A stretch of DNA of 64,000 nucleotides from Rhizophagus irregularis (Eukaryota > Glomeromycota > Glomeromycetes > Glomerales > Glomeraceae): positions 434,001 to 498,000 of the forward strand of contig NC_089436.1 of NCBI RefSeq assembly GCF_026210795.1. The letters are read 5' to 3'. A program made the position numbers and the translations under genes. Below are positions 2,014 to 63,992 of this stretch, in pieces; position 1 is the first letter of the stretch; the number at the start of each line of letters is the position of its first letter. The notes beneath the pieces were generated by a model that saw only the letters and a list, made by a program, of their open reading frames with translations, did no database searches and was not told the DNA's origin.

Positions 2014-4840
2014 AAACTGCATACAATAAAATAAATTTTATTAAAAATTAAATTATATTATTCATTAAAATTTTGTTTATTTGTCAATTCATTTGTTTGT
2101 GAAAAATTAATAATTAATTTCTTTCATCAATATTTAAAATGTTTAATTCTTAACAAACTTTAATAAATAAATGAATGAAATGCTTTTTTATAAAGAAATA
2201 TTATTTAAAATATTACCGGACTGCTACGCTACACACACTTGTTAATATTAGAGAAATTAGGACTGATAGCTTCAAACCCAATAATTACCAAATAAAGTCT
2301 CTGAAATTTATTAAAAATTTATGCTTTTATTAAATTATTCTTATAGAGTGCATGAGCAGTTTCTCTCTTTATTTAATCTTTAAACAAAATTTAAGAAAAA
2401 TTTCTCATCATAAAAAAAATATCATATGAGATAAGATATTTTCTAAACTCACAGTATCGATGAGGCGGACGAGCTGAATAAAACTTTGCACTTTCGGTTA
2501 TTGATATACTGTAGTAGGTAATTCTGTGTAAACAATTTGTGGTGATTTGTATTTAAATTCCAATTTATATTTCATAATAAAGAGTCTTGCAAATTAAAAA
2601 AAAGTGTATTATTATTACTGTATGATGATATTTTATTTTTATAAGAGTACATTAAATTATCAGATATTACCCAATCATCTCAAATTCTATTATTTGAATA
2701 ATGTGGAAGAAACTATAAAAAAAAAAGAAAAGTTCTTAGTATTGTTAAAAGACAAAATACTAATTTATTACTTCCATGATAGGAGTCATGGCAGTTATAT
2801 GATGGCTTAATTGAAAAATTCATGAGGCGCATAATGGCATAAGTATAATAAAGTAATAATAATTTTCATAAGCTGGTATTAATTTTTTGAGAAGCAACTT
2901 CCAGGCGTTATGTTCAATTTCTTGCAAAAAAAATCAGAAAACTTTGACTTCTAACCTAGGAAATTAATAAACGATCAATCTGATGGCTCAAGAATTTTTT
3001 CTTAGAATAATTAACAAACAAATTTTGATACTCACAGTGTACACTTGTGAAATAAAGTCGAGATCAGTGTTTTTTATGTTCTTTGCGGAAGTGCAGCCCT
3101 AGATATTAGTCGCACAAATTGATCTGTGAGTTGTTGGTCGAATTTCTAGTATAATATGATAAAAAAAATGGAAAAAAGACAAACAATAAAAAATAAAATA
3201 AATATAATTATAAATATAAAATGAAAATAAAATAAAAAAATACGAAAAAAATGAACAAAAAAATAATAAAGAAAATGATATAAAATATGGACGTTCCACG
3301 GCATCCCCATAAGAAGATAATTTTCATATGATAACAGAGAAAATTCGATTATCTATGTTAAAGTAGCTTGTTAAAAGGAAACGTTGTGAAATTTTTCTAA
3401 CGTAGTTTTTTATAAAATCTGAAAACTCAAAGGAAGGCCAATGTAAATGTTACTTTTTTTTGCAACACAAACTAATACAATTACGCGTATTCCCTTAGTA
3501 CTGTACTTTAGAGATTAAAACCACTGTTCAAACAATATCTTCAATTTTGATCAATCAATAAAATCAATATCGAGATCAATAGCTTGAGCATACCCTATTT
3601 GTATTATATTTTTTTGAAAGTTTCAAGCATCAATAATTTTTTTATATTGAAAACTCATTTTTGTTATAAAAATAAAAAATAACATGAAATGATTAATCAC
3701 TTACTCTTCATTAGTAAAATAGTGTTATATTATTTTTCATCAGATAACTTTTATATCTGATGAAAAAAAAAATAATAATAAATTATTGTCTTTGCTACAA
3801 TGATAGGATAATTTGCAGAAAGAAATTATCATTATTGTATAAAAGATAATATTTATTAATTGCACTTTTAGTGTATAATACATTTACCGATAAAAAAGTG
3901 AAAAAAAACGTTACCAAGTCAAAAATGTCATTCAAAACCTCCTTGATTTTTTTAATTAATGCTCCCTAAGGAAATTTGCATCTCTTTTAATAAAGCCTGC
4001 AGAATTATGTATACTGCGAAAATTTCAATGAAAATAATTGTGTAATTAATTCCTATATCTGTTCTGAGACAAATTTGGTCATCAGTAATAATAAGTGATG
4101 TATATAATAATATATTTTTGGTAGCTTACCGTAGTATGTTTGCCCGTTAAATTGTTAAATCGGTATTATCAGTATTACTATTAACAACACATCCATAAAT
4201 TACAATGTCTTATTATGTTTCCAAAAGTGTATATCCGAATATCAGCTATAAAAATAATAAAAATAACTCAAACTTGTTATTAGTTATCAATAGTATTAAT
4301 AATATTTGTAAAAATATAAGTCAATAAAAGTTTCAGTCAATAATATCGTGCATACGACTGATCTGAAATGATATAAATAAACATAAAATTTATTAAATAA
4401 ATTTTCAAATATAATTATTGTATACTTTGAAAATCATCTAAAATCATCTGTTATTAGTAAAGTGATCGTCAAACGAAGATTTTGAAAGAAAATTAAGGAA
4501 ATTAAGGGCAAATAATATAAATAATAATGGACTAATCCAATTGAACGCAATCACAACATACTGGAATCACCACTTAAAGCAATAATATTTTTAATCTTAG
4601 TGGTAAATGATTCAGTTTATTCATAATTAGTATCTCTAGTATAACCATTAACTATAAAAAAGAAAAAAGATAAATGCGTGATATATAATGTTCTTAATTT
4701 TCAAATTAATTATTTACCAAATATTATTCCTTTTAAAATTGAGGATTCTTCATTCTACTGGTGATTGTAAATCTCTGCATTCACCTATTAGAGAAAGAAA
4801 AATTATTAATAGTGTGCTAAATTTTATTTAATCATAAAGA
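2014..4840. other. AT-rich intergenic DNA, no gene recognised
   Basis: Only short, low-complexity reading frames are present. I found no splice-consistent gene, no RNA gene and no clear element ends. The stretch follows a dead TLDc gene and leads into transposon-derived sequence. Confidence 0.5.
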
Positions 4841-12303: not shown

Positions 12304-15300
12304 ATGTTATATCATTACGAATTGTGTAACAAATGTGGTGAAGATTATGTAAATGACACATACTATGGTATTCGTATAATTGAAAGATGGTGGTGTAGAT
12401 CATGTCTAATAAATAATTTAAAGAATAACTTTACAAAATGGACAAGTGGCAATAAAGAAATTGATGATTTCATTCAAAAACAGCAATTAAATTTTAAATA
12501 TTCTCATAATCTAATAATTGAATGGATACCATATAATCAATTTATTTATGTTAAAAAATTAGAAAAAAATGTTGATAATGCTGTTACTATATATTCAGCA
12601 TTATGGAATAATGGTTCATTACATTATGATATTAGTCAAGAGGAATTAACAAGAAAACCTAATATAAAAGTTGTATTAAAATGTTTAAACAACTCTCGAA
12701 ATATAATTGATGAAATTCTAATTAAGGTATGAAGTATTATTTATATGTTTAATTCAAATAATTTAATATACATAATAAACTTTTTTATATTTAATAGAAT
12801 ATAACATATTATATGTATGGGATATCTCAACACCCGGATACAAAAGATTACATCATTGTTTTACAAGATATATATTGTGAAAAATGTACAAGAGTATATA
12901 ATAAATGGTGTAAGCCATGTTACAGAAATTATTTTATAAATGAATTTAAAAACTGGACCAGTGGAAATGAAATAATTGATGATATCATTAAAAAAGTACA
13001 ATTGAAAATTATACCTAATGATATAGTAGTTGAATGGATACCTTTTAATCAATTTATCAATATTAAAGAAATAGAAAAAGTTGATGACAATACTACTATA
13101 TATTCAGCAATTTGGAATAATGGCCCATTGTATTATAATACCAATATAAAGGAATGGATAAGAAATCCTAATATAAAAGTTGCATTAAAATGTTTTAATG
13201 ATTCACAAGATATTATTGATGAATTACTTAGTAAGGTATGAGAATTATTTGTAAATTTAACTTAAATGTTTAATATAATAACTTTATTTATATTTAATAG
13301 GCTGAAAAATATAAAAAATCCTGTACTAGATTAAGTAGATTACATGAATTATATGGAATATCACAAAACCCAGATACAGAAAAATATATCATTGTTCAAG
13401 ATAAATATTGTGGAAAATGTGGTGAAAAATATACAAATGAATGTATTAAATGGTGTAGACCATGTCACATAAATTATTTTGAAAATGTGTGGACCAGTGG
13501 AAATGAAATAATTGATGATATCATTTTAAAAATGCAATTAGAAAATAGTTATTATAAAATAGTTGAATGGATACCATTTAATCAATTTATTAATATTAAA
13601 GAAATGGTAAAAGTTAATGATAAAACTATATATTCAGCATTGTGGAGTAACGGCTTATTATATTATAATAAATATAAAAAGAAATGGATGAGAGATCCTA
13701 ATTTAAAAGTCACAATAAAATGTTTTAACAATTCACAAAATATTATTGATGTATTACTTGATAAGGTATGGATTATTTACAAATTTAACTCAAGTACTTT
13801 AAATAAATAACTTTATTTATATTTAATAGGGTAAAAATTACAAAATTTATGGAATATCTCAAAACCCAAATACAAAAGAATACATTATTGTTTTAGAAAA
13901 TCGATTATATGAAAATGTATTGTGTCAGACATATCACAAAAATTATTTAAAAAATAATTTTACAAAATGGACAAGTGGAAATGAAAAAATTGATATTTTT
14001 ATTCAAAAATTACAATTAACAGTTGATAAAAATGATAGAAATATATGTGAGTGGATACCATACAATCAGTTTGTTAATATTAAAGAAATTGAAAAAAATG
14101 ATTTACTTACAATACATTCAGCTATATGGAATGATAGTCCATTTTATTATAATTCTATTAAAGAGGAAATAATAAGAAAACCTAAAAAAGTTACATATAC
14201 TACATTAAATAAATCACAAAATATGATTGATGATTTTCTTAATAAGGTATAAAAATCATTTTAAGTTTGATTCAAATTCTTTTCTTTTATTATAATAATT
14301 TATTTACATTAAACAGGTTAAAGATATACTGATGATTAACAATCGTGAAGTATATGATAGATCCTCTATTTTTTGTAAGTATTGTTCTTTAATGTGTGGA
14401 ATATCTCAAAATCCAGATACAGGAAATTATATCATAGTTTCACAGGATGAATATTGTGAAAAATGCAGTAAGCAATATACAAACATACATAATAAATGGT
14501 GTTTATGTCAAACAAATTGGAGTGGAAATAAAGAAATTGATGATTTAATTCAAGAAATACAATTAAAAAAAAATTATTATAATAAAGCTGAATGGATACC
14601 ATACAATCAGTTTATTAATATTAAAGAAATTGCAAAAGATAATAACAATGCTACTATTATATATTCAGCAATATGGAAGAATGGTCCATTATCATACATT
14701 AATAATTAATGGATAAGAAACTCTTATTATACAAGTGTTATATTAAAATATTTGGATATTAATGAATTTACCAGCAAGGTATGACAGTTATTTATAAGTT
14801 TAATTTAAATAATTTTAAATAATAGACATTTATACTTATTAATATATATAGGATAATTATCACAACATATATGGAATATCTCAAAATCCAGATGCCAAAG
14901 AATATATCATGGTTTTATCAAATTATAAATATTGTGAAAAATGTGGTGAATGGTATACAGATCAAAATGATATTTATAAATGGTGTAAGCCATGTTGCAT
15001 AAATTATTTTAACAATGAGTTTAAAAACTGGACCAGTGGAAATGAAATGATTGATAATTTTATTTTAGGAATGCAATTAAAAATCAATAATCGTAAGGAT
15101 AAAATAGTTGAGTGGATACCATACAATCAATTTATTAACATCAAAGAAATAGCAAAAAATAATAATAATGCTACCATTATATATTCAGCAATATGGATAA
15201 ATGGTCCATTAAAATTTGATTTTATTTATAAATCATATAAAAGAAAATGTTATAAAAGAGTTATATTAAGCTGCTTAACATTAGATATCAATGAATTTTC

Positions 15301-17661
15301 CAATAAGGTATGGAATTTTTTACATACTAACTTAAACATTTTATTTCAAATAATCATTTATTTATATTTATAGATTAATAATTATAAAGGTATATATGGA
15401 ATATCACAAAATCCAGATACAAAAAATTATTTTATAGTTTTAAATAATATCCCATGGTTAATTTTACAAAATAATTTTACAAATTTAAGTGGAAATAAAA
15501 TAATTGATGATTTTATTCAAGAAATGCAATTAAAAATTAATAATTGGACTCATATAATAGTTGAATGGATACCACATACTGATATTACAAAAATTGAGAA
15601 AATTGTTAATAATGCATATTCAGCTATATGGAAAAATGGTCCACTATATTATAGATATGATAAAAAGGAATGGATAAGACATTCTAATAAAAAAGTTATA
15701 TTAAATTCCTTAGCATCAGATATTAAGAAATTTCTTAATAAGGTATAAAAATTATTTGTAAATTTAATAACTTAAATATTCAAAGAAAATAACTAACTTA
15801 TTTGTAATTTATTAGGCTAAAAAATATAATAGTATATATGGAATAACTCAAAATCCATATACAAATGATTATATTTTAGTTCTTCAAAATAGGAATTGTA
15901 AAAAATGTGGTAAACCATATAGTGATTTAAAAAATAAATGGTGTGAGTTATGTGAAATAAATTATATACGAAATAATTTTGCAAATTGGAGTGGAAATGA
16001 AAAAATTGATAATTTTATTCAAGAAAAGCAAATAAAGATAAATGTTTTTAATGATATAGTAGTTGAATGGATACCATACAATCAGTTTATTAATATTGAA
16101 AAAATTGAAAAAGTTGGTGATAATATTACTATTATCTATTCAGCAATATGGAAGAATGGTCCATTATATTATGAAAAAAATAGAAAGGAATGGATAAGGA
16201 ATTCTTATGAAGAAGTTGTATTAAAATGCTTAACATTAGATATCAATGAATTTTTTATTGAGGTATGAAAGTTATTTACATCTAGCTTAAATATTTTACT
16301 TTAAATAATAATTTTATTTATATTTAATAGGCTAACAATTATAATGATATATACGGAATGTCTCAAAATCCAAATACAAACAATTATATTTTAGTTTTTC
16401 AAAATAATCAGTGTTGTAATAGATGTTACAAACTATATAGTACTGATATGACTGGTTTAGGAGGGAAATGTTGTAATTCATGCCAAATAAATTATATACA
16501 TAATAATTTGACAAATTGGAGTGAAAACCAAAAAATTAATGATTTTGTTCGAGAAATGCATTTGAAAATTAATAATTATGAAGATATAATATTTGAATGG
16601 ATACCATACAATCAGTTTGATTATATTGAAGTAATTGGTAAAGGTGGTTTCGCTACAATATATTCAGCAATATGGAAGGATGGTCCATTAAAATGTAATT
16701 ATGATAAGATATATAAAAGAGATGTTAATTATAAAGAGGTTGCATTAAAAAGTATAGATAAATCACATAATAAAATTAATGAATTTTTAAATGAGGTATG
16801 AAATTTTTAAATTTTAAAATAATTATTTAATATATTGATTTTTTTTTTATGTTTATATAGGTAAAAGCATATTCAATTAAATGTAATATTTATAATAGTA
16901 TTCTTAAAATATATGGAATATCTCAAAATCCTATTACAAAAAATTATATTATAGTTCTTCAATATGCAAAATATGGAAGTATTAATAATTGGATGCATTA
17001 TTTCTATAAAGATTTTGATTGTCATGTTAAATATGAATTACTTTCAAATATATATAGTGGTCTTATAAAAATTCATGAAAACCAGATGGTTCATCGTGAT
17101 TTTCATATAGGAAATATTTTAGTTAGTAATGATAAGTATATTGGAACTATTCCTTTAGGTATATATATTTCAGATATGGGATTATGTGGAGAAGTTGGTA
17201 ATAAAAATGAAACAAAAATTTATGGAGTTATGCCTTATGTAGCTCCTGAAGTATTAAGAGGCAAGCCTTATACTCAAGCAGCAGATATATATAGTTTTGG
17301 TATGGTTATGTATTATATTATAACTGGAAGACAACCTTTTGAAAATCGTACACATGATAGTTTATTAGCATTAGATATATGTAATGGAATTAGACCTGAA
17401 GTACCTGAAATACCTGAATTGAAATCAAATCGGTATATTAATCTAATGAAAAAATGTTGGGATTCAAATCCAGATAATAGACCAAATGTTTTTTCAATAA
17501 GTATATATTGTTTGACAGATGAAATTGAAAAAGCAGAAAAATATCTACTTAGAGAATATAAGGAAAGCAGCCAATTAACTATTACTCATTCACAAGCTAT
17601 TTACACATCTCGGTTACTTAATCCTTATACAGAAGGACTTGCATTTGATTTTACAGAGTAA
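12304..17661 (+). CDS. Kinase with nine tandem zinc-knuckle/N-lobe exons
   Basis: Ten exons, all joined in phase 0: 12304-12726, 12798-13235, 13301-13765, 13830-14246, 14317-14778, 14852-15307, 15374-15742, 15816-16262, 16331-16795, 16861-17661. Donors are GTAT(G/A), acceptors TAG or CAG, introns 64-73 bp. Exons 1-9 each encode a CxxC...CxxC knuckle, WTSGN linker, EWIPYNQF and a kinase N-lobe (TIYSAIWxNGPL...VALK...FLNK). From exon 2 each starts with the YGISQNPDTKxYIIVL hinge region. Exon 10 supplies the C-lobe: HRDFHIGNIL (Asp at 17098), SDMGLCG replacing DFG, APE at 17242. Only unit 9 has a proper glycine loop (GKGGFA, 16637) with VALK. Exon 5 contains one in-frame TAA at 14707, where the aligned codon in sister units is GAA. 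Summed length is 4743 nt. TKL-type fungal kinase is the best class; substrate unknown. The gene could be functional if exon 5 is skipped, otherwise a pseudogene. Confidence 0.8.
14707..14709 (+). other. In-frame TAA in kinase exon 5
   Basis: Codon 131 of exon 5 is TAA directly before TGGATAAGAAA. Exons 2, 7 and 8 have GAATGGATAAGA at the same place, so a single G-to-T change explains the stop. Because the exon has 462 bases and phase-0 borders, removing it by exon skipping would restore the frame. Confidence 0.8.
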
Positions 17662-18230: not shown

Positions 18231-18240
18231 AACTGCCTCA

Positions 18241-20399
18241 ATGAGCAAAACAAAACAGTATGAAGTAACCCTTCTGGCCAAGGGAATTATTTCAGAAGAT
18301 TTACACTATGGAATACATGCACGAAATTGGTGGGAACCATGCAAATTTGCTCAAACCAACTTTAATCCAATACCTTACCGACTATTTATGTCTGTTAATT
18401 GTTGTCTTAACAGTAAAAATTTTGCAATAACAATTCTTAATGATGGGCAAACACAAAATCCATGTTTCCGTTGTGTTTGTGATGGTAAAGATTCTGGAAT
18501 TCAAGCGTCAGCGAATGCAGCTATTAATAACATGTACGTACAAATTTTTGGTAATAAAACAACAAAGTATTCAGGATTAATTGTTATGGGATTTGATAAT
18601 GAAGCAATTGTTCGTGAGTTAGTAGCTGATGTTTCATTTGTTCCAATATTTATTCGTTTAGATAAAATAATAATTGTGGTTAGTAAAATTGGTGTTTCAT
18701 CTCGTGAAGGATATTATGGTGCCAGTCCAGGATATTTTTCTACACTTATAACAAAATATGCAGGCAAACAATCACTTTTTGTACAATCCATAGAAGATGA
18801 ATGTAGTTTAGACATTTATAATGAAGGTGTTAAATTATACCATAATAAGAATACTACACCTAATAAAATTTGGGAAACTATTGATATTCACAAAAAATAT
18901 GATGGAGTGGCTTTATTCGGAATTACTGATCCATATATTCAACAAAAATTGGAAGAACTGAATAAATTAGAAAAAAGTAAATTAGAAAAGAGTAAAAATT
19001 TAATCACTTGTACAAGTGATAATTGGGAAAATATTGATATATTGAATCTTATATTTGAGCAAAATATAAAAAAATGTAAAATTGCTACTAGTACATTTTT
19101 AGATTGGTCAAACTTATTTACAAATTGGTATAAACAAACTAATACAATAATTCAATTTCCCACAATTTTATTTCAAATTTATCCAAATAATTACCAATTC
19201 CAAGAAAAAGAATTAAACGCGTGGCGAGCAATGTTTTGTGCCGCTGGTTGTACCAATATCACTCCACTTGTAAAAAAAAAGCATATAATTGAATTTTGGA
19301 CAAAAGCATCAGATCCTTCGTCTGATAGGGATAATCTAGTAAAACTTTTTGAATCAGGAATGTTATTGGTAATGGAAAAGAAATCTCAACCTAATAGCGA
19401 AAGTGAAAAAATTTGGGAAAGTTTACAAAAAGCTTTAGAAGCAAATAAAAGAGGAGTTGATGGAAAAGTTAGGATTCTTTCAATAATTGCTGAAAATTTT
19501 ACATATAAAAAACTCAATGAGAAGTTTGGGGTAAAGTTAAAAATTATATTTATTGAATTTATTATAAATAAATCTTAAAAATAACTAAATACTTACATAT
19601 AGGTAGGAAATAATATAATTAATTCTGCACGAAAATATGCAAGACTTAATGGACCAGGAGCACCAAGCCTAATAAAACCAAAAGAACTGTTAAACAAATG
19701 TCTGAAATTAAAGAAAAGCAAATTTTAATGTTTTTTCAAGATCAAAGTATAGTTACGCAAAGTTCTTACCAGGTGGATAAGAATGGATCACCAATATTAT
19801 ATATGCGTGATCAAAAAATCAAACTGTGGAAAAAATTTGAAGAAACTTTTCCTAATGGTATGAAAAAGACATCATTTTTGGGCCGATTAGCAAATTGTAA
19901 TAATATCAAATATCGGAATGATATGGGTGGACTTTGCCTTACCTGTAATGAATATGGCTATACTCCATTTGAGTCTTTAATAGCTATTGCACACAATACA
20001 TTTTCACAAAAAGATCAGTTAGTAAGTAAAATTTTTAATAAACAAATTATTTTAGTTTGAAAATATTATAATTTACCTTTTATTAATATTTTTAGAATAA
20101 TGCATTGCGAAAAATTGACACTTTAAAGCGTCACTTGCGTCGTGGTTATGAAAGAGAATTGGCGGTTAATGCTGATGGTACAACACAACATAATCTCTGT
20201 ATTTCTCATTGTTTACCATATGCCTTTGGAAAATGTTTGGAAAAACATAAGTCACGATGCTCAGAGTGTGATAAATTTTTTGAATTTTTTGAATTTATGC
20301 ACCTACATGTAAATGAAGATCAGCAGCTTTTTTAGAAGAAATAAAAGAACATTTGCAGTATTTCTTAGCCCATACAACACGAAAAGTATACTTGAATGC
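18241..20399 (+). pseudogene. Transposase-like gene, N-terminal half
   Basis: Exon 1 (18241-19530, 430 codons, phase 0, donor GTAAAG) starts MSKTKQYEVTLLAKG, includes YSGLIVMGFDNEAIVRELV and EGYYGASPGYFSTL, and ends RILSIIAENFTYKKLNEKFG, which with exon 2 (from 19603, NNIINSARKYARLNGPG) looks like a helix-turn-helix. A one-base frame change near 19686 separates this from KQMSEIKEKQILMFFQDQ onwards. That frame runs to 20021 (donor GTAAGT). Exon 3 starts at 20096 (NNALRKIDTLKRHLRRGYER) and has a Cys/His cluster (HNLCISHCLPYAFGKC, then HKSRCSEC) that may bind zinc. A T6 run at 20328 shifts frame again before EEIKEHLQYFLAHTTRKVYL, where the insertion starts. The first exon is intact; the whole is not. 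Confidence 0.7.
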
Positions 20400-62082: not shown

Positions 62083-63992
62083 ATGTCTGCTATTCGATAT
62101 GAATCAATTCTTGCTGCAATCCAAAAAGCAAATGAATTAACAGATTATTACGATAATTATAATGATTTAGATACACAACATGAATTTCAAAAACAAATAG
62201 TGCTTGCTGATACATCTCTTACAGAAAATGAAAAAACTGAAGCGATAAGAGAATTAAATAAGATTTATGATCGGAATAAAGTTCTTCATAATGAAGGAAT
62301 AAAAAGGATTTGTGAAAATTGTAACCAAAAATGTTTAGCTACATTATATTGTGAATATTGTGTTCGAAATTATCTAAAAGGGAATTTTCCAAATTGGACA
62401 TCTGGAAATGATGACGTTGATGATTTGATACAAAAATATCAGATGGAATCATTCAGACCTGATAATATAGTTGAATGGATTCCATATAATAATTTACAAA
62501 ATTTTGAATATTTAACAGAAGGTGGATTTTCTGAAATATATACAGCAACTTGGATTGATGGAAAATATGAAGAATGGGATTCTAAAGAAATAAAATTAAA
62601 AAGATTTGGAGATATTAAAATAATACTTAAAAAATTAGGAAATGTTGAAAGTGCAAACCGAAGGTGGTTTGAAGAGGTTTGTAATCAAAGCATTATGAAA
62701 CTTTTTTAACCTTAATTAATAAGCTTTACTGGTATTTTGGCAGGCTAAAACACATTTAACCATAAGCAATAAATGGCCACAATTTGTTCAATGTTTTGGT
62801 TTAACACAAGATCTATCAAATGGAAGTTTTATGCTTGTAATGTATAAAATGGATACGGATTTAAGAAAATATTTGCAACAAACGCACAATCAACTTACAT
62901 GGAAAGAGAAAATTAAGATAGCTTATGGTATAATTCTTGCACTTAGTATTATTCATAGTGAAAATGCAATTCATAGAGATTTACATTCTGGGAATATATT
63001 AAATTTGCAACTAAATCAGAAATGGTATATTAGCGATTTTGGATTTTGTGGTCCTGCTGATAAACCGCTAAATTGTATATTTGGAAACCTTCCGTATATA
63101 GCACCTGAAGTTATTACTGGAAAAGGGTATACTTTTGCATCTGATATTTATAGTTTTGCAATGCTTATGTGGGAAATTTCATCTGGACAACCACCGTTTA
63201 TGAATTATGAACATGATTATATTCTTGCAATAAAAATTATTGATGGTAAAAGACCAAAAATTGTATCAGGAACTCCATTAAGATATGCAAATTTAATGAA
63301 AAAATGTTGGGACGCTGATCCAGTAAGAAGACCTGATATTAATACACTTGTAGGCGAAATTTTTGATATGTATGAAAATAAACTAGACGAATTACCTCAA
63401 CCAAAAGCAAAGGATAAGATGAAAACGACAATACCTCAACCAAAAGCAAAGAATAAGATGAAAACGACAATACCTCAACCAAAAGCAAAGAATAAGATGG
63501 AAACGATAAGTAGCAAGTCGTTTACAAGTAAAATATATAACTTTGAAAATCTTCCTGAACCGAGAAATGCAACAGAAAGTAAGTCATGACTGGCAATTAA
63601 TCCTTTACTAACAACAAAAAATTTTTTTTTATTAATATCTTTCTGAACTTAATTACTTAAACAATATTAGAAGAACAAATAGGTAAAGTCAATGAAATTT
63701 TTGTTTACTTTAACATATATTTGATTATTATTATTGATTCTATAATAATAATGTTCCCTTTATTATTAGCACCATTTTATATTAGTAGATCTTATGACTT
63801 TAGTAGTTCTGATAATAGTGATAATAGTAAGTAATTATTAAATTACCATTAGATTTCATGTAATGAAATATAAAGAACAGACTTTAAAGCTTTATTATAT
63901 CAAATATCTGATTAATATTTCTTTTAGTTTCAAGTAAAAAATTATCGAAAGTATTTAAAAAATTACAGATAAATTCAAAGAATGGCAAGTAA
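62083..63992 (+). CDS. TKL-like protein kinase, intact
   Basis: Exons: 62083-62676, 62744-63578, a 12-base micro-exon 63671-63682, 63770-63826, 63928-63992; phases agree and give 520 residues. The N-terminus is helical (MSAIRYESILAAIQKANELT), then a Cys knuckle (CENCNQKC...CEYC) and WTSGNDDVDDLIQKYQM. The kinase begins EWIPYNN with glycine loop EGGFSEIY and lysine in IILKKL. Exon 2 has HRDLHSGNIL (Asp at 62978), SDFGFCG (63034), APEV (63101) and a CWDADPVRRPD end. Three copies of a 13-residue PQPKAKNKMKTTI unit follow, then an acidic/Ser tail ending SSKKLSKVFKKLQINSKNGK. It is a single-unit relative of the array kinase at 12304-17661. All catalytic motifs are present, so activity is likely; substrate unknown. 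The tail exons are less certain than exons 1-2. Confidence 0.85.

What the first reader, a model, noticed from the sequence alone, without database searches (positions are those of the whole stretch)
12304..17661. Kinase gene with nine tandem zinc-knuckle/N-lobe exons before one C-lobe
Seen: nine consecutive phase-0 exons of 369-465 bases encode the same module (CxxC knuckle, WTSGN, EWIPYNQF, TIYSAIWxNGPL, VALK-like strand, FLNK helix), and only the tenth exon supplies HRD, DMG and APE. Established: N-lobe and C-lobe normally occur once each in a kinase. Inference: the gene makes, or made, a protein with a chain of eight surplus N-lobes, which could act as scaffold, decoy or regulatory array, or yields many isoforms by choosing N-lobes. 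I know of no described kinase of this form.
Basis: partly seen in the sequence, partly recalled or inferred. Interest (0 to 1): 0.92.

Follow-up and report, generated by a model that had tools for sequence, protein, structure and literature searches.

The report
Kinase genes with repeated half-kinase exons
A symbiotic soil fungus carries many genes in which one kinase that looks functional ends a chain of several copies of only the upper half of a kinase, copies that have mostly lost their ATP-binding residues but keep their shape, an arrangement for which I found no description.

Summary
Two corrections. The repeated exon is out of register with the N-lobe: exons 2-10 all open with strands beta4-beta5, which normally begin the C-lobe exon, so each surplus lobe is completed by the next exon. 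And the gene is not alone: this genome (Rhizophagus irregularis) has at least 78 clusters of two or more such exons, the 26 arrays I assembled each end in one C-lobe, and annotated proteins with 4-14 N-lobes and one C-lobe exist in R. irregularis, R. clarus and Glomus cerebriforme. The last N-lobe keeps Gly loop (22/25 v 9/120 others), VALK (25/25 v 17/120) and alphaC Glu (25/25 v 53/120); 33 other columns are conserved in both. In six related arrays 82-133 nonsense changes were expected in surplus exons, one seen (this window's exon 5; another isolate's copy is open there). Best reading: one live kinase tethered to ATP-less N-lobes acting as a multivalent docking array (function inferred). 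Splicing choice among N-lobes is disfavoured; in-frame passengers remain a serious rival. Ten searches of an open library found no description.

The parts
12304..12726 (+). Exon 1: start, CxxC knuckle, N-lobe beta1-beta3 and start of alphaC; no beta4-beta5; no Gly loop (surplus lobe 1)
   Evidence: reading frame, splice sites; motifs
12798..13235 (+). Exon 2: beta4-beta5 of lobe 1, knuckle, beta1-beta3/alphaC of lobe 2
13301..13765 (+). Exon 3: beta4-beta5 of lobe 2, knuckle, lobe 3
13830..14246 (+). Exon 4: beta4-beta5 of lobe 3, no CxxC pair, lobe 4
14317..14778 (+). Exon 5: beta4-beta5 of lobe 4, knuckle, lobe 5; in-frame stop
14707..14709 (+). In-frame stop codon in exon 5 of this assembly; an annotated copy from another isolate (P0169) is open here
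14852..15307 (+). Exon 6: beta4-beta5 of lobe 5, knuckle, lobe 6
15374..15742 (+). Exon 7: beta4-beta5 of lobe 6, no knuckle cysteines, lobe 7
15816..16262 (+). Exon 8: beta4-beta5 of lobe 7, knuckle, lobe 8; no Gly loop
16331..16795 (+). Exon 9: beta4-beta5 of lobe 8, knuckle, the one N-lobe with Gly loop, VALK and alphaC Glu together
16861..17661 (+). Exon 10: end of alphaC, beta4-beta5 of lobe 9, hinge, C-lobe (HRD, DMG, APE), stop
   Evidence: (Pkinase 1.7e-32, PK_Tyr_Ser-Thr 3.8e-30)

Best explanation
Shown by sequence: the locus is one of a genome-wide class of multi-exon genes whose exons join in frame into one polypeptide of several kinase N-lobes in a row, most with a four-cysteine knuckle, followed by one C-lobe. 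The repeat unit is out of register with the domain (beta4-beta5 of a C-lobe exon fused in frame to the knuckle and beta1-beta3/alphaC of a first exon, phase 0 at both ends), so neighbouring exons together build each lobe. Typically only the last lobe, next to the C-lobe, keeps the full ATP site. Inferred origin: a recombination between codons after beta5 in exon 2 and codons before the knuckle in exon 1 of an ordinary kinase, then unequal exchange. Inferred function: one live kinase at the C-terminus tethered to a chain of ATP-less pseudo-N-lobes that serve as protein-binding surfaces (N-lobe/alphaC contacts of the kind used by RAF/KSR dimers, recalled, plus the knuckles): a multivalent docking or dimerising platform that gathers or gates kinases.
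For: Architecture: of 28 strand-stretches with module hits, 26 hold one C-lobe and none more than one; these 26 arrays have 4-13 module hits before it; 102 of 120 listed annotated proteins are N(2 or more)C with one C. Junctions: 182 of 188 called, 181 of them phase 0. Order: in the AlphaFold2 model of a 6N+C protein (P0084, mean pLDDT 76.8) each lobe reads beta1-beta2-hairpin-beta3-alphaC-beta4-beta5. Selective loss: the only columns at 85% or more in last lobes and under 60% in the others are four Gly-loop residues, the VALK Ala, one Ile and the alphaC Glu, while 33 columns stay conserved in both; the Gly-loop split recurs in R. clarus alone (31/33 v 2/265). In-frame reading: 1 nonsense codon seen v 82-133 expected in surplus exons. 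Constraint: surplus dN/dS mean 0.65 v 0.90 (SD 0.10-0.11) in a neutral simulation. Three arrays equal annotated proteins over their aligned length. Last lobes are nearest to other arrays' last lobes in 24 of 25.
Against: No transcript or protein was seen. Stop-free frames would also follow if surplus exons were passengers, since a stop in them would cut off the kinase. Constraint is modest: two of 15 pairs (AB 0.85, BC 0.89) lie near neutral and the C-lobe itself is 0.79. The window's own copy has a stop in exon 5. The beta3 Lys is still present in 97 of 120 surplus lobes, and in the larger protein set 281 of 878 non-last lobes keep VAxK (96 of 102 last), so ATP loss is inferred. Seven called junctions score poorly and six could not be called. 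One annotated model (P0076) differs from my splicing of the same locus. Full-chain pTM is 0.48, so the arrangement of the lobes is not predicted. No binding partner is known.
Confidence: 0.6

Rival explanations
1. In-frame passengers: the exon unit multiplies by unequal exchange and is tolerated because it is phase-symmetric; surplus lobes fold but have no task beyond not harming the terminal kinase.
For: Copy number varies widely (4-13 module hits, 4-14 N-lobes); 34 of 127 internal modules have their nearest relative in the same array, a sign of recent duplication; constraint among related arrays is modest; several arrays hold frameshifted or stopped modules.
Against: 33 columns are kept at 80% or more (of the residues present) in 147 non-last modules, although modules outside the six closest rows are only 41-66% identical to the queries in most rows; loss is concentrated in the ATP site; positions 4 and 7 are knuckle-less in all six related arrays, so positions are stable and differentiated.
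Confidence: 0.2
2. Isoform choice: alternative splicing joins one chosen N-lobe exon to the C-lobe exon, giving many kinases from one gene.
For: All exon ends in the window are phase 0, so any exon could join exon 10 in frame; 181 of 182 called junctions elsewhere and here are phase 0.
Against: The Gly loop is absent in 111 of 120 and exact VALK in 103 of 120 non-last lobes, so most choices would be dead; annotated proteins include many lobes in series; exons 2-9 used first would carry a stray beta4-beta5.
Confidence: 0.1
3. Cis-acting decoys: surplus lobes compete with the last lobe for the gene's own C-lobe and so hold the kinase off until something pulls them away.
For: Surplus lobes keep the conserved core columns of the N-lobe.
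Against: Nothing here shows contact between surplus lobes and the C-lobe (one search reports no contacts); about half have lost the alphaC Glu; no biochemical data.
Confidence: 0.08
4. Pseudogene or assembly artefact.
For: Stop in exon 5 of the window; in the six related arrays two modules of 54 are frameshifted and were left out, and a third (C10:3842910, position 4) has only a poor downstream junction.
Against: The form recurs in 78 or more clusters on 22 contigs, in R. clarus and G. cerebriforme proteins, and in another isolate (P0169); nonsense depletion.
Confidence: 0.02

Closest known systems
Expanded single-domain kinases of Glomeromycotina (CxxC knuckle + WTSGN + PF07714/PF00069 domain; e.g. 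L057 here and P0279 of Geosiphon)
   Same: Same knuckle and N-lobe motifs; in R. irregularis the frame breaks at the same place in alphaC (intron phase not checked there)
   Different: One N-lobe and one C-lobe; the arrays add N-lobes built from a fused unit
Tandem kinase-pseudokinase proteins (plant family around Yr15, seen only as a title and abstract start in the listing; JAK JH2-JH1, recalled)
   Same: A dead kinase-like part in one chain with a live kinase
   Different: There the dead part is a whole two-lobed domain (recalled); here only N-lobes repeat, up to 14 in the proteins listed, and a single C-lobe serves
RAF/KSR-type N-lobe dimers (recalled; RAF kinases are among the matches)
   Same: Works-like comparison only: N-lobe surfaces as allosteric docking sites
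   Different: No dimer was predicted or tested here
Phase-symmetric tandem exon arrays (Dscam-type, recalled)
   Same: Tandem copies of a 0-0 exon
   Different: Copies appear to be used in series; the unit is out of register with the domain

Membership tests
Eukaryotic protein kinase (terminal N-lobe + C-lobe) | C-lobe with HRD, DFG-like Asp and APE | tested here: met
   Window exon 10 has HRD, DMG, APE and Pfam Pkinase 1.7e-32; over 26 arrays HRD 22 (the other four keep the Asp as HHD or HQD), D[MFL]G 24, APE 26
Eukaryotic protein kinase (terminal N-lobe + C-lobe) | Gly loop, beta3 Lys, alphaC Glu in the N-lobe joined to the C-lobe | tested here: met
   Window exon 9 has all three; last lobes overall 22/25, 25/25, 25/25
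Eukaryotic protein kinase (surplus lobes) | Gly loop and VAxK | tested here: not met
   9/120 and 22/120; none of the 7 surplus window exons scanned matched a kinase family at E up to 1
Tyrosine-kinase-like (TKL) group | Placement in the TKL group by phylogeny | not tested
   Profile matches include RIPK1, TAK1, MLK and Roco4 but also receptor tyrosine kinases; no tree was built
Tandem kinase-pseudokinase | Two complete kinase domains in one chain | tested here: not met
   One C-lobe hit in each of the 26 arrays; 102 of 120 listed proteins have one C, 14 none and 4 two adjacent C hits
Mutually exclusive exon array | Each message holds one copy of the exon | not testable with these tools
   No transcripts held; annotated models include many copies in series
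Four-cysteine zinc knuckle | CxxC...CxxC binding zinc | tested here: inconclusive
   Both CxxC pairs in 96 of 120 non-last and 23 of 25 last lobes; no Pfam zinc family over its cut-off in the nine window exons scanned; metal binding not tested

The most novel reading that the evidence does not exclude
The kinase N-lobe has become a free-standing repeated domain: in Rhizophagus dozens to hundreds of genes make half-kinase chains, each built out of register with its exons, in which up to about 13 ATP-less N-lobes form a multivalent allosteric array for one terminal kinase or for other kinases' C-lobes, a signalling architecture with no counterpart that I found described.
Probability: 0.35. Interest if true: 0.9.

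Novelty: new variant of a known kind. Interest (0 to 1): 0.78.

Why it matters
The kinase expansion of arbuscular mycorrhizal fungi is known (2,533 kinase genes counted in PMC10234402, passages seen; PF07714 the commonest motif of expanded genes in PMC6123716, passages seen), but counts that rest on domain models may not see the surplus lobes: none of the 7 surplus exons scanned matched a Pfam kinase family at E up to 1. If the arrays are real proteins, a good part of this expansion is not more kinases but longer kinases, with a half-domain reused as a repeat. That makes a sharp question testable: what does a kinase N-lobe do without ATP and without a C-lobe of its own, many times over? The exon unit also records how a domain can be amplified out of register and still fold.

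Tried and rejected

Distribution outside Rhizophagus: of 120 listed of 419 hits (candidate lengths about 252-801), proteins of Gigaspora, Ambispora, Acaulospora, Geosiphon, Entrophospora, Funneliformis and Scutellospora appear; the five multi-N-lobe proteins without an inner C-lobe and the one N-C-N-C protein were all Rhizophagus. Longer proteins of other genera were not searched, so absence is not shown.

Papers: ten searches and passages of PMC10234402, PMC6123716, PMC8778642, PMC4771724 and PMC6007072 gave no mention of repeated N-lobes; PMC8401276 held none of the terms asked. The pseudokinase survey cited by PMC10234402 (PMC6997932) is not held and was not read; most subscription journals and all preprints are outside the library.

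Failed or mended steps: the first tiling of loci turned minus-strand pieces wrongly and was redone; the first loop extraction missed its column and was redone. Rows dropped: one search left out two of 28 strand-stretches without a C-lobe hit (C12, a short piece; C2 minus strand, one module). One search scored 145 of 188 module pieces (43 lacked a readable loop or VxxK stretch) and 25 of 26 last modules; the missing one, C10:3430027, reads VGRGGF in its annotated protein P0132. Its loop pattern also misses GKGCF, so 22/25 is a low count. Searches left out two frameshifted modules. One search used 120 of 484 hits, some of them near-copies from different isolates. One search used 172 modules, and its frequencies are among residues present, gaps apart. 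The count (349 modules, 151 clusters, 78 with two or more) merges three searches capped at 150 rows each, copied by hand (450 rows), and is a lower bound.
Full report
What is there. The window lies in a 146.7-Mb genome of 32 contigs. Contig lengths equal those given for R. irregularis OCT59 proteins (5829432, 4919323, 5258217), so the organism is R. irregularis DAOM197198 or a very close copy. At 12304-17661 (+) there are ten exons with introns of 64-73 nt, every intron GTAT...AG and every junction phase 0.

Exons 2 to 10 all start with a short linker and the motif YGISQNPxTxxYIIVLQ. In single-N-lobe kinases of this genome that motif, strands beta4 and beta5, lies with the C-lobe, and the stretch before it holds knuckle, beta1-beta3 and the start of alphaC (for example L057, L065, L067, L068; intron phase not checked there). 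The array unit is therefore beta4-beta5 (from a C-lobe exon) fused in frame to knuckle-beta1-beta3-alphaC (from a first exon). Exon k+1 completes the lobe begun in exon k. The AlphaFold2 model of the annotated relative P0084 (six N-lobes, 1198 aa, 20 sequences, mean pLDDT 76.8, pTM 0.48) shows this order in each unit: two helices, beta1, beta2, a hairpin, beta3, alphaC, beta4, beta5, with alphaC running over the place of the junction as judged by motifs. The surplus parts are thus whole N-lobes, not broken ones. The relative placing of the lobes is not predicted with confidence.

It is a gene class. Three protein searches of the genome, each capped at 150 rows, together give at least 349 module exons in 151 clusters, 78 of them with two or more modules and 49 with three or more, on 22 contigs. 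Of 28 strand-stretches with module hits that I read (the window and fetched loci), 26 have exactly one C-lobe hit, after 4 to 13 module hits, and none has more; the other two are a short piece and a lone module. Some stretches begin inside an array, and frameshifted modules count twice, so these counts are rough. Of 188 junctions, 182 were called, 181 in phase 0, 177 of 60-104 nt, 176 with a GTA donor; seven scored poorly and six could not be called; the finder favours phase 0 somewhat. Three of my spliced proteins equal annotated ones over the aligned part: C14:1109089 with P0174 (897 residues), C26:2312722 with P0180 (980), C6:3708000 with P0175 (1031; my model has one more module in front). 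Others differ: the annotated P0076 shares 83% over 1145 residues with my model of the same C5 locus and leaves out parts of four modules. Sampling 16 C-lobe loci by hand from the Pkinase table, 8 have two or more N-lobes just upstream and 8 have one; the arrays include a second subfamily (KANW instead of SAIW in beta2), one of them degraded (L062). Annotated proteins: of 120 listed (of 484 hits), 102 read as two or more N then one C, with 4 to 14 N; 14 have no C hit and 4 have two adjacent C hits; 37 of the 120 are R. clarus and 3 Glomus cerebriforme by their listed names. P0169 from another R. irregularis isolate is the window gene's counterpart: 98-100% identity in nine of ten exons where aligned (exon 1 only in part; 84% in exon 3), nine N-lobes and one C-lobe, and no stop in exon 5.

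One live lobe per array. In 25 last modules against 120 others: Gly loop 22 v 9, exact VALK 25 v 17, alphaC Glu 25 v 53, beta3 Lys 25 v 97, both CxxC 23 v 96 (Fisher p 6e-16, 3e-17, 3e-8, 0.014, 0.25). These arrays are related, so p values overstate independence. The split appears in R. clarus proteins taken alone (Gly loop 31/33 v 2/265, VAxK 33/34 v 61/269) and in the whole protein set, more weakly for VAxK (Gly loop 84/102 v 20/870, VAxK 96/102 v 281/878, Lys 102/102 v 751/878). Column by column, the positions conserved in last modules (85% or more) and not in the others (under 60%) are three Gly and one Phe of the loop, the Ala of VALK, one Ile and the alphaC Glu; 33 columns are conserved in both (85% and 80% of residues present), among them four Cys, EWIP, GISQ and the Trp of AIW. 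Surplus lobes have mostly shed the nucleotide site and kept the rest. In two C1 arrays the C-lobe has lost its DxG, so a few arrays may be dead throughout.

Are the surplus exons read and constrained? Six arrays (the window; C10:3430027, 3842910, 3865275; C29:2932764, 3047061) share the same nine positions. Among 1243 substitutions in surplus modules, 133 (intron-based spectrum) or 82 (uniform) nonsense codons would be expected and one is seen, in the window's exon 5; two frameshifted modules were left out, and one more has a poor junction. Because a stop here would also cut off the kinase, this shows that the exons are read in series with it, not that they do something. For that, dN/dS of surplus modules averages 0.65 over 15 pairs (range 0.51-0.89), against 0.90 (SD 0.10-0.11) in a neutral simulation with stops forbidden; by medians module 9 is 0.43, surplus positions 0.50-0.78 and the C-lobe 0.79. 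So constraint is real but modest at this depth, and clearer in the conserved columns over all arrays. Positions 4 and 7 lack both CxxC in all six arrays, so positions are stable.

How it most likely works. Shown: gene class, order of parts, typically one ATP-site lobe per chain, in-frame maintenance. Inferred: origin by an out-of-register fusion and later unequal exchange (34 of 127 internal modules are nearest to a module of the same array); loss of ATP binding; and use as a multivalent docking or dimerising chain. N-lobe and alphaC surfaces are docking sites in RAF/KSR and related kinases (recalled). Isoform choice is disfavoured because most choices would be dead; passengers remain a serious rival.

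Known or not. Kinase expansion in R. irregularis is in print (PMC10234402, PMC6123716, passages seen). No paper found by the ten searches named in Tried and rejected describes repeated N-lobes. The proteins themselves are in databases under names such as Rad53p, Mkk2p, Ste20p or protein kinase domain-containing.

Noticed in passing
window 62305-63490 (+): A second kinase of the same broad family with a single N-lobe hit and a C-lobe hit.
   Followed up: no
window 18232-19578 (+): A 448-codon open frame right after the array gene, of no kind that I recognised on reading; not searched.
   Followed up: no
P0076 (annotated protein of the C5:5100500 array): The public gene model joins the knuckle directly to the Gly-loop region in three of six modules and shortens a fourth, relative to my open exons; either internal alternative splicing or a model error.
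   Followed up: no
P0001-P0075: Many single array exons sit in metagenome databases as short proteins, some named ribosomal protein L37AE/L43A, RPABC4/Spt4 or exonuclease V alpha subunit, perhaps because of the CxxC knuckle.
   Followed up: no
P0235 (Ambispora gerdemannii), P0068 and P0071 (Funneliformis caledonium): On reading, partial kinase duplications in which a knuckle follows a cut inside the C-lobe, a different breakpoint from the Rhizophagus unit; these are partial gene models.
   Followed up: partly
P0311 (R. irregularis): Two kinase domains in tandem (N-C-N-C), a plain duplication beside the half-domain arrays.
   Followed up: no
L041 (C2:419500-427500), about 2270-3485: A 1.2-kb gap interrupts an otherwise regular array between modules 3 and 4; insertion or gene boundary not worked out.
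   Followed up: no
L053 and L027 (C1:5203500, C1:5210114): Two arrays whose C-lobe has lost the DxG motif; in one the last Gly loop is also degraded, so the whole gene may be a pseudokinase.
   Followed up: partly
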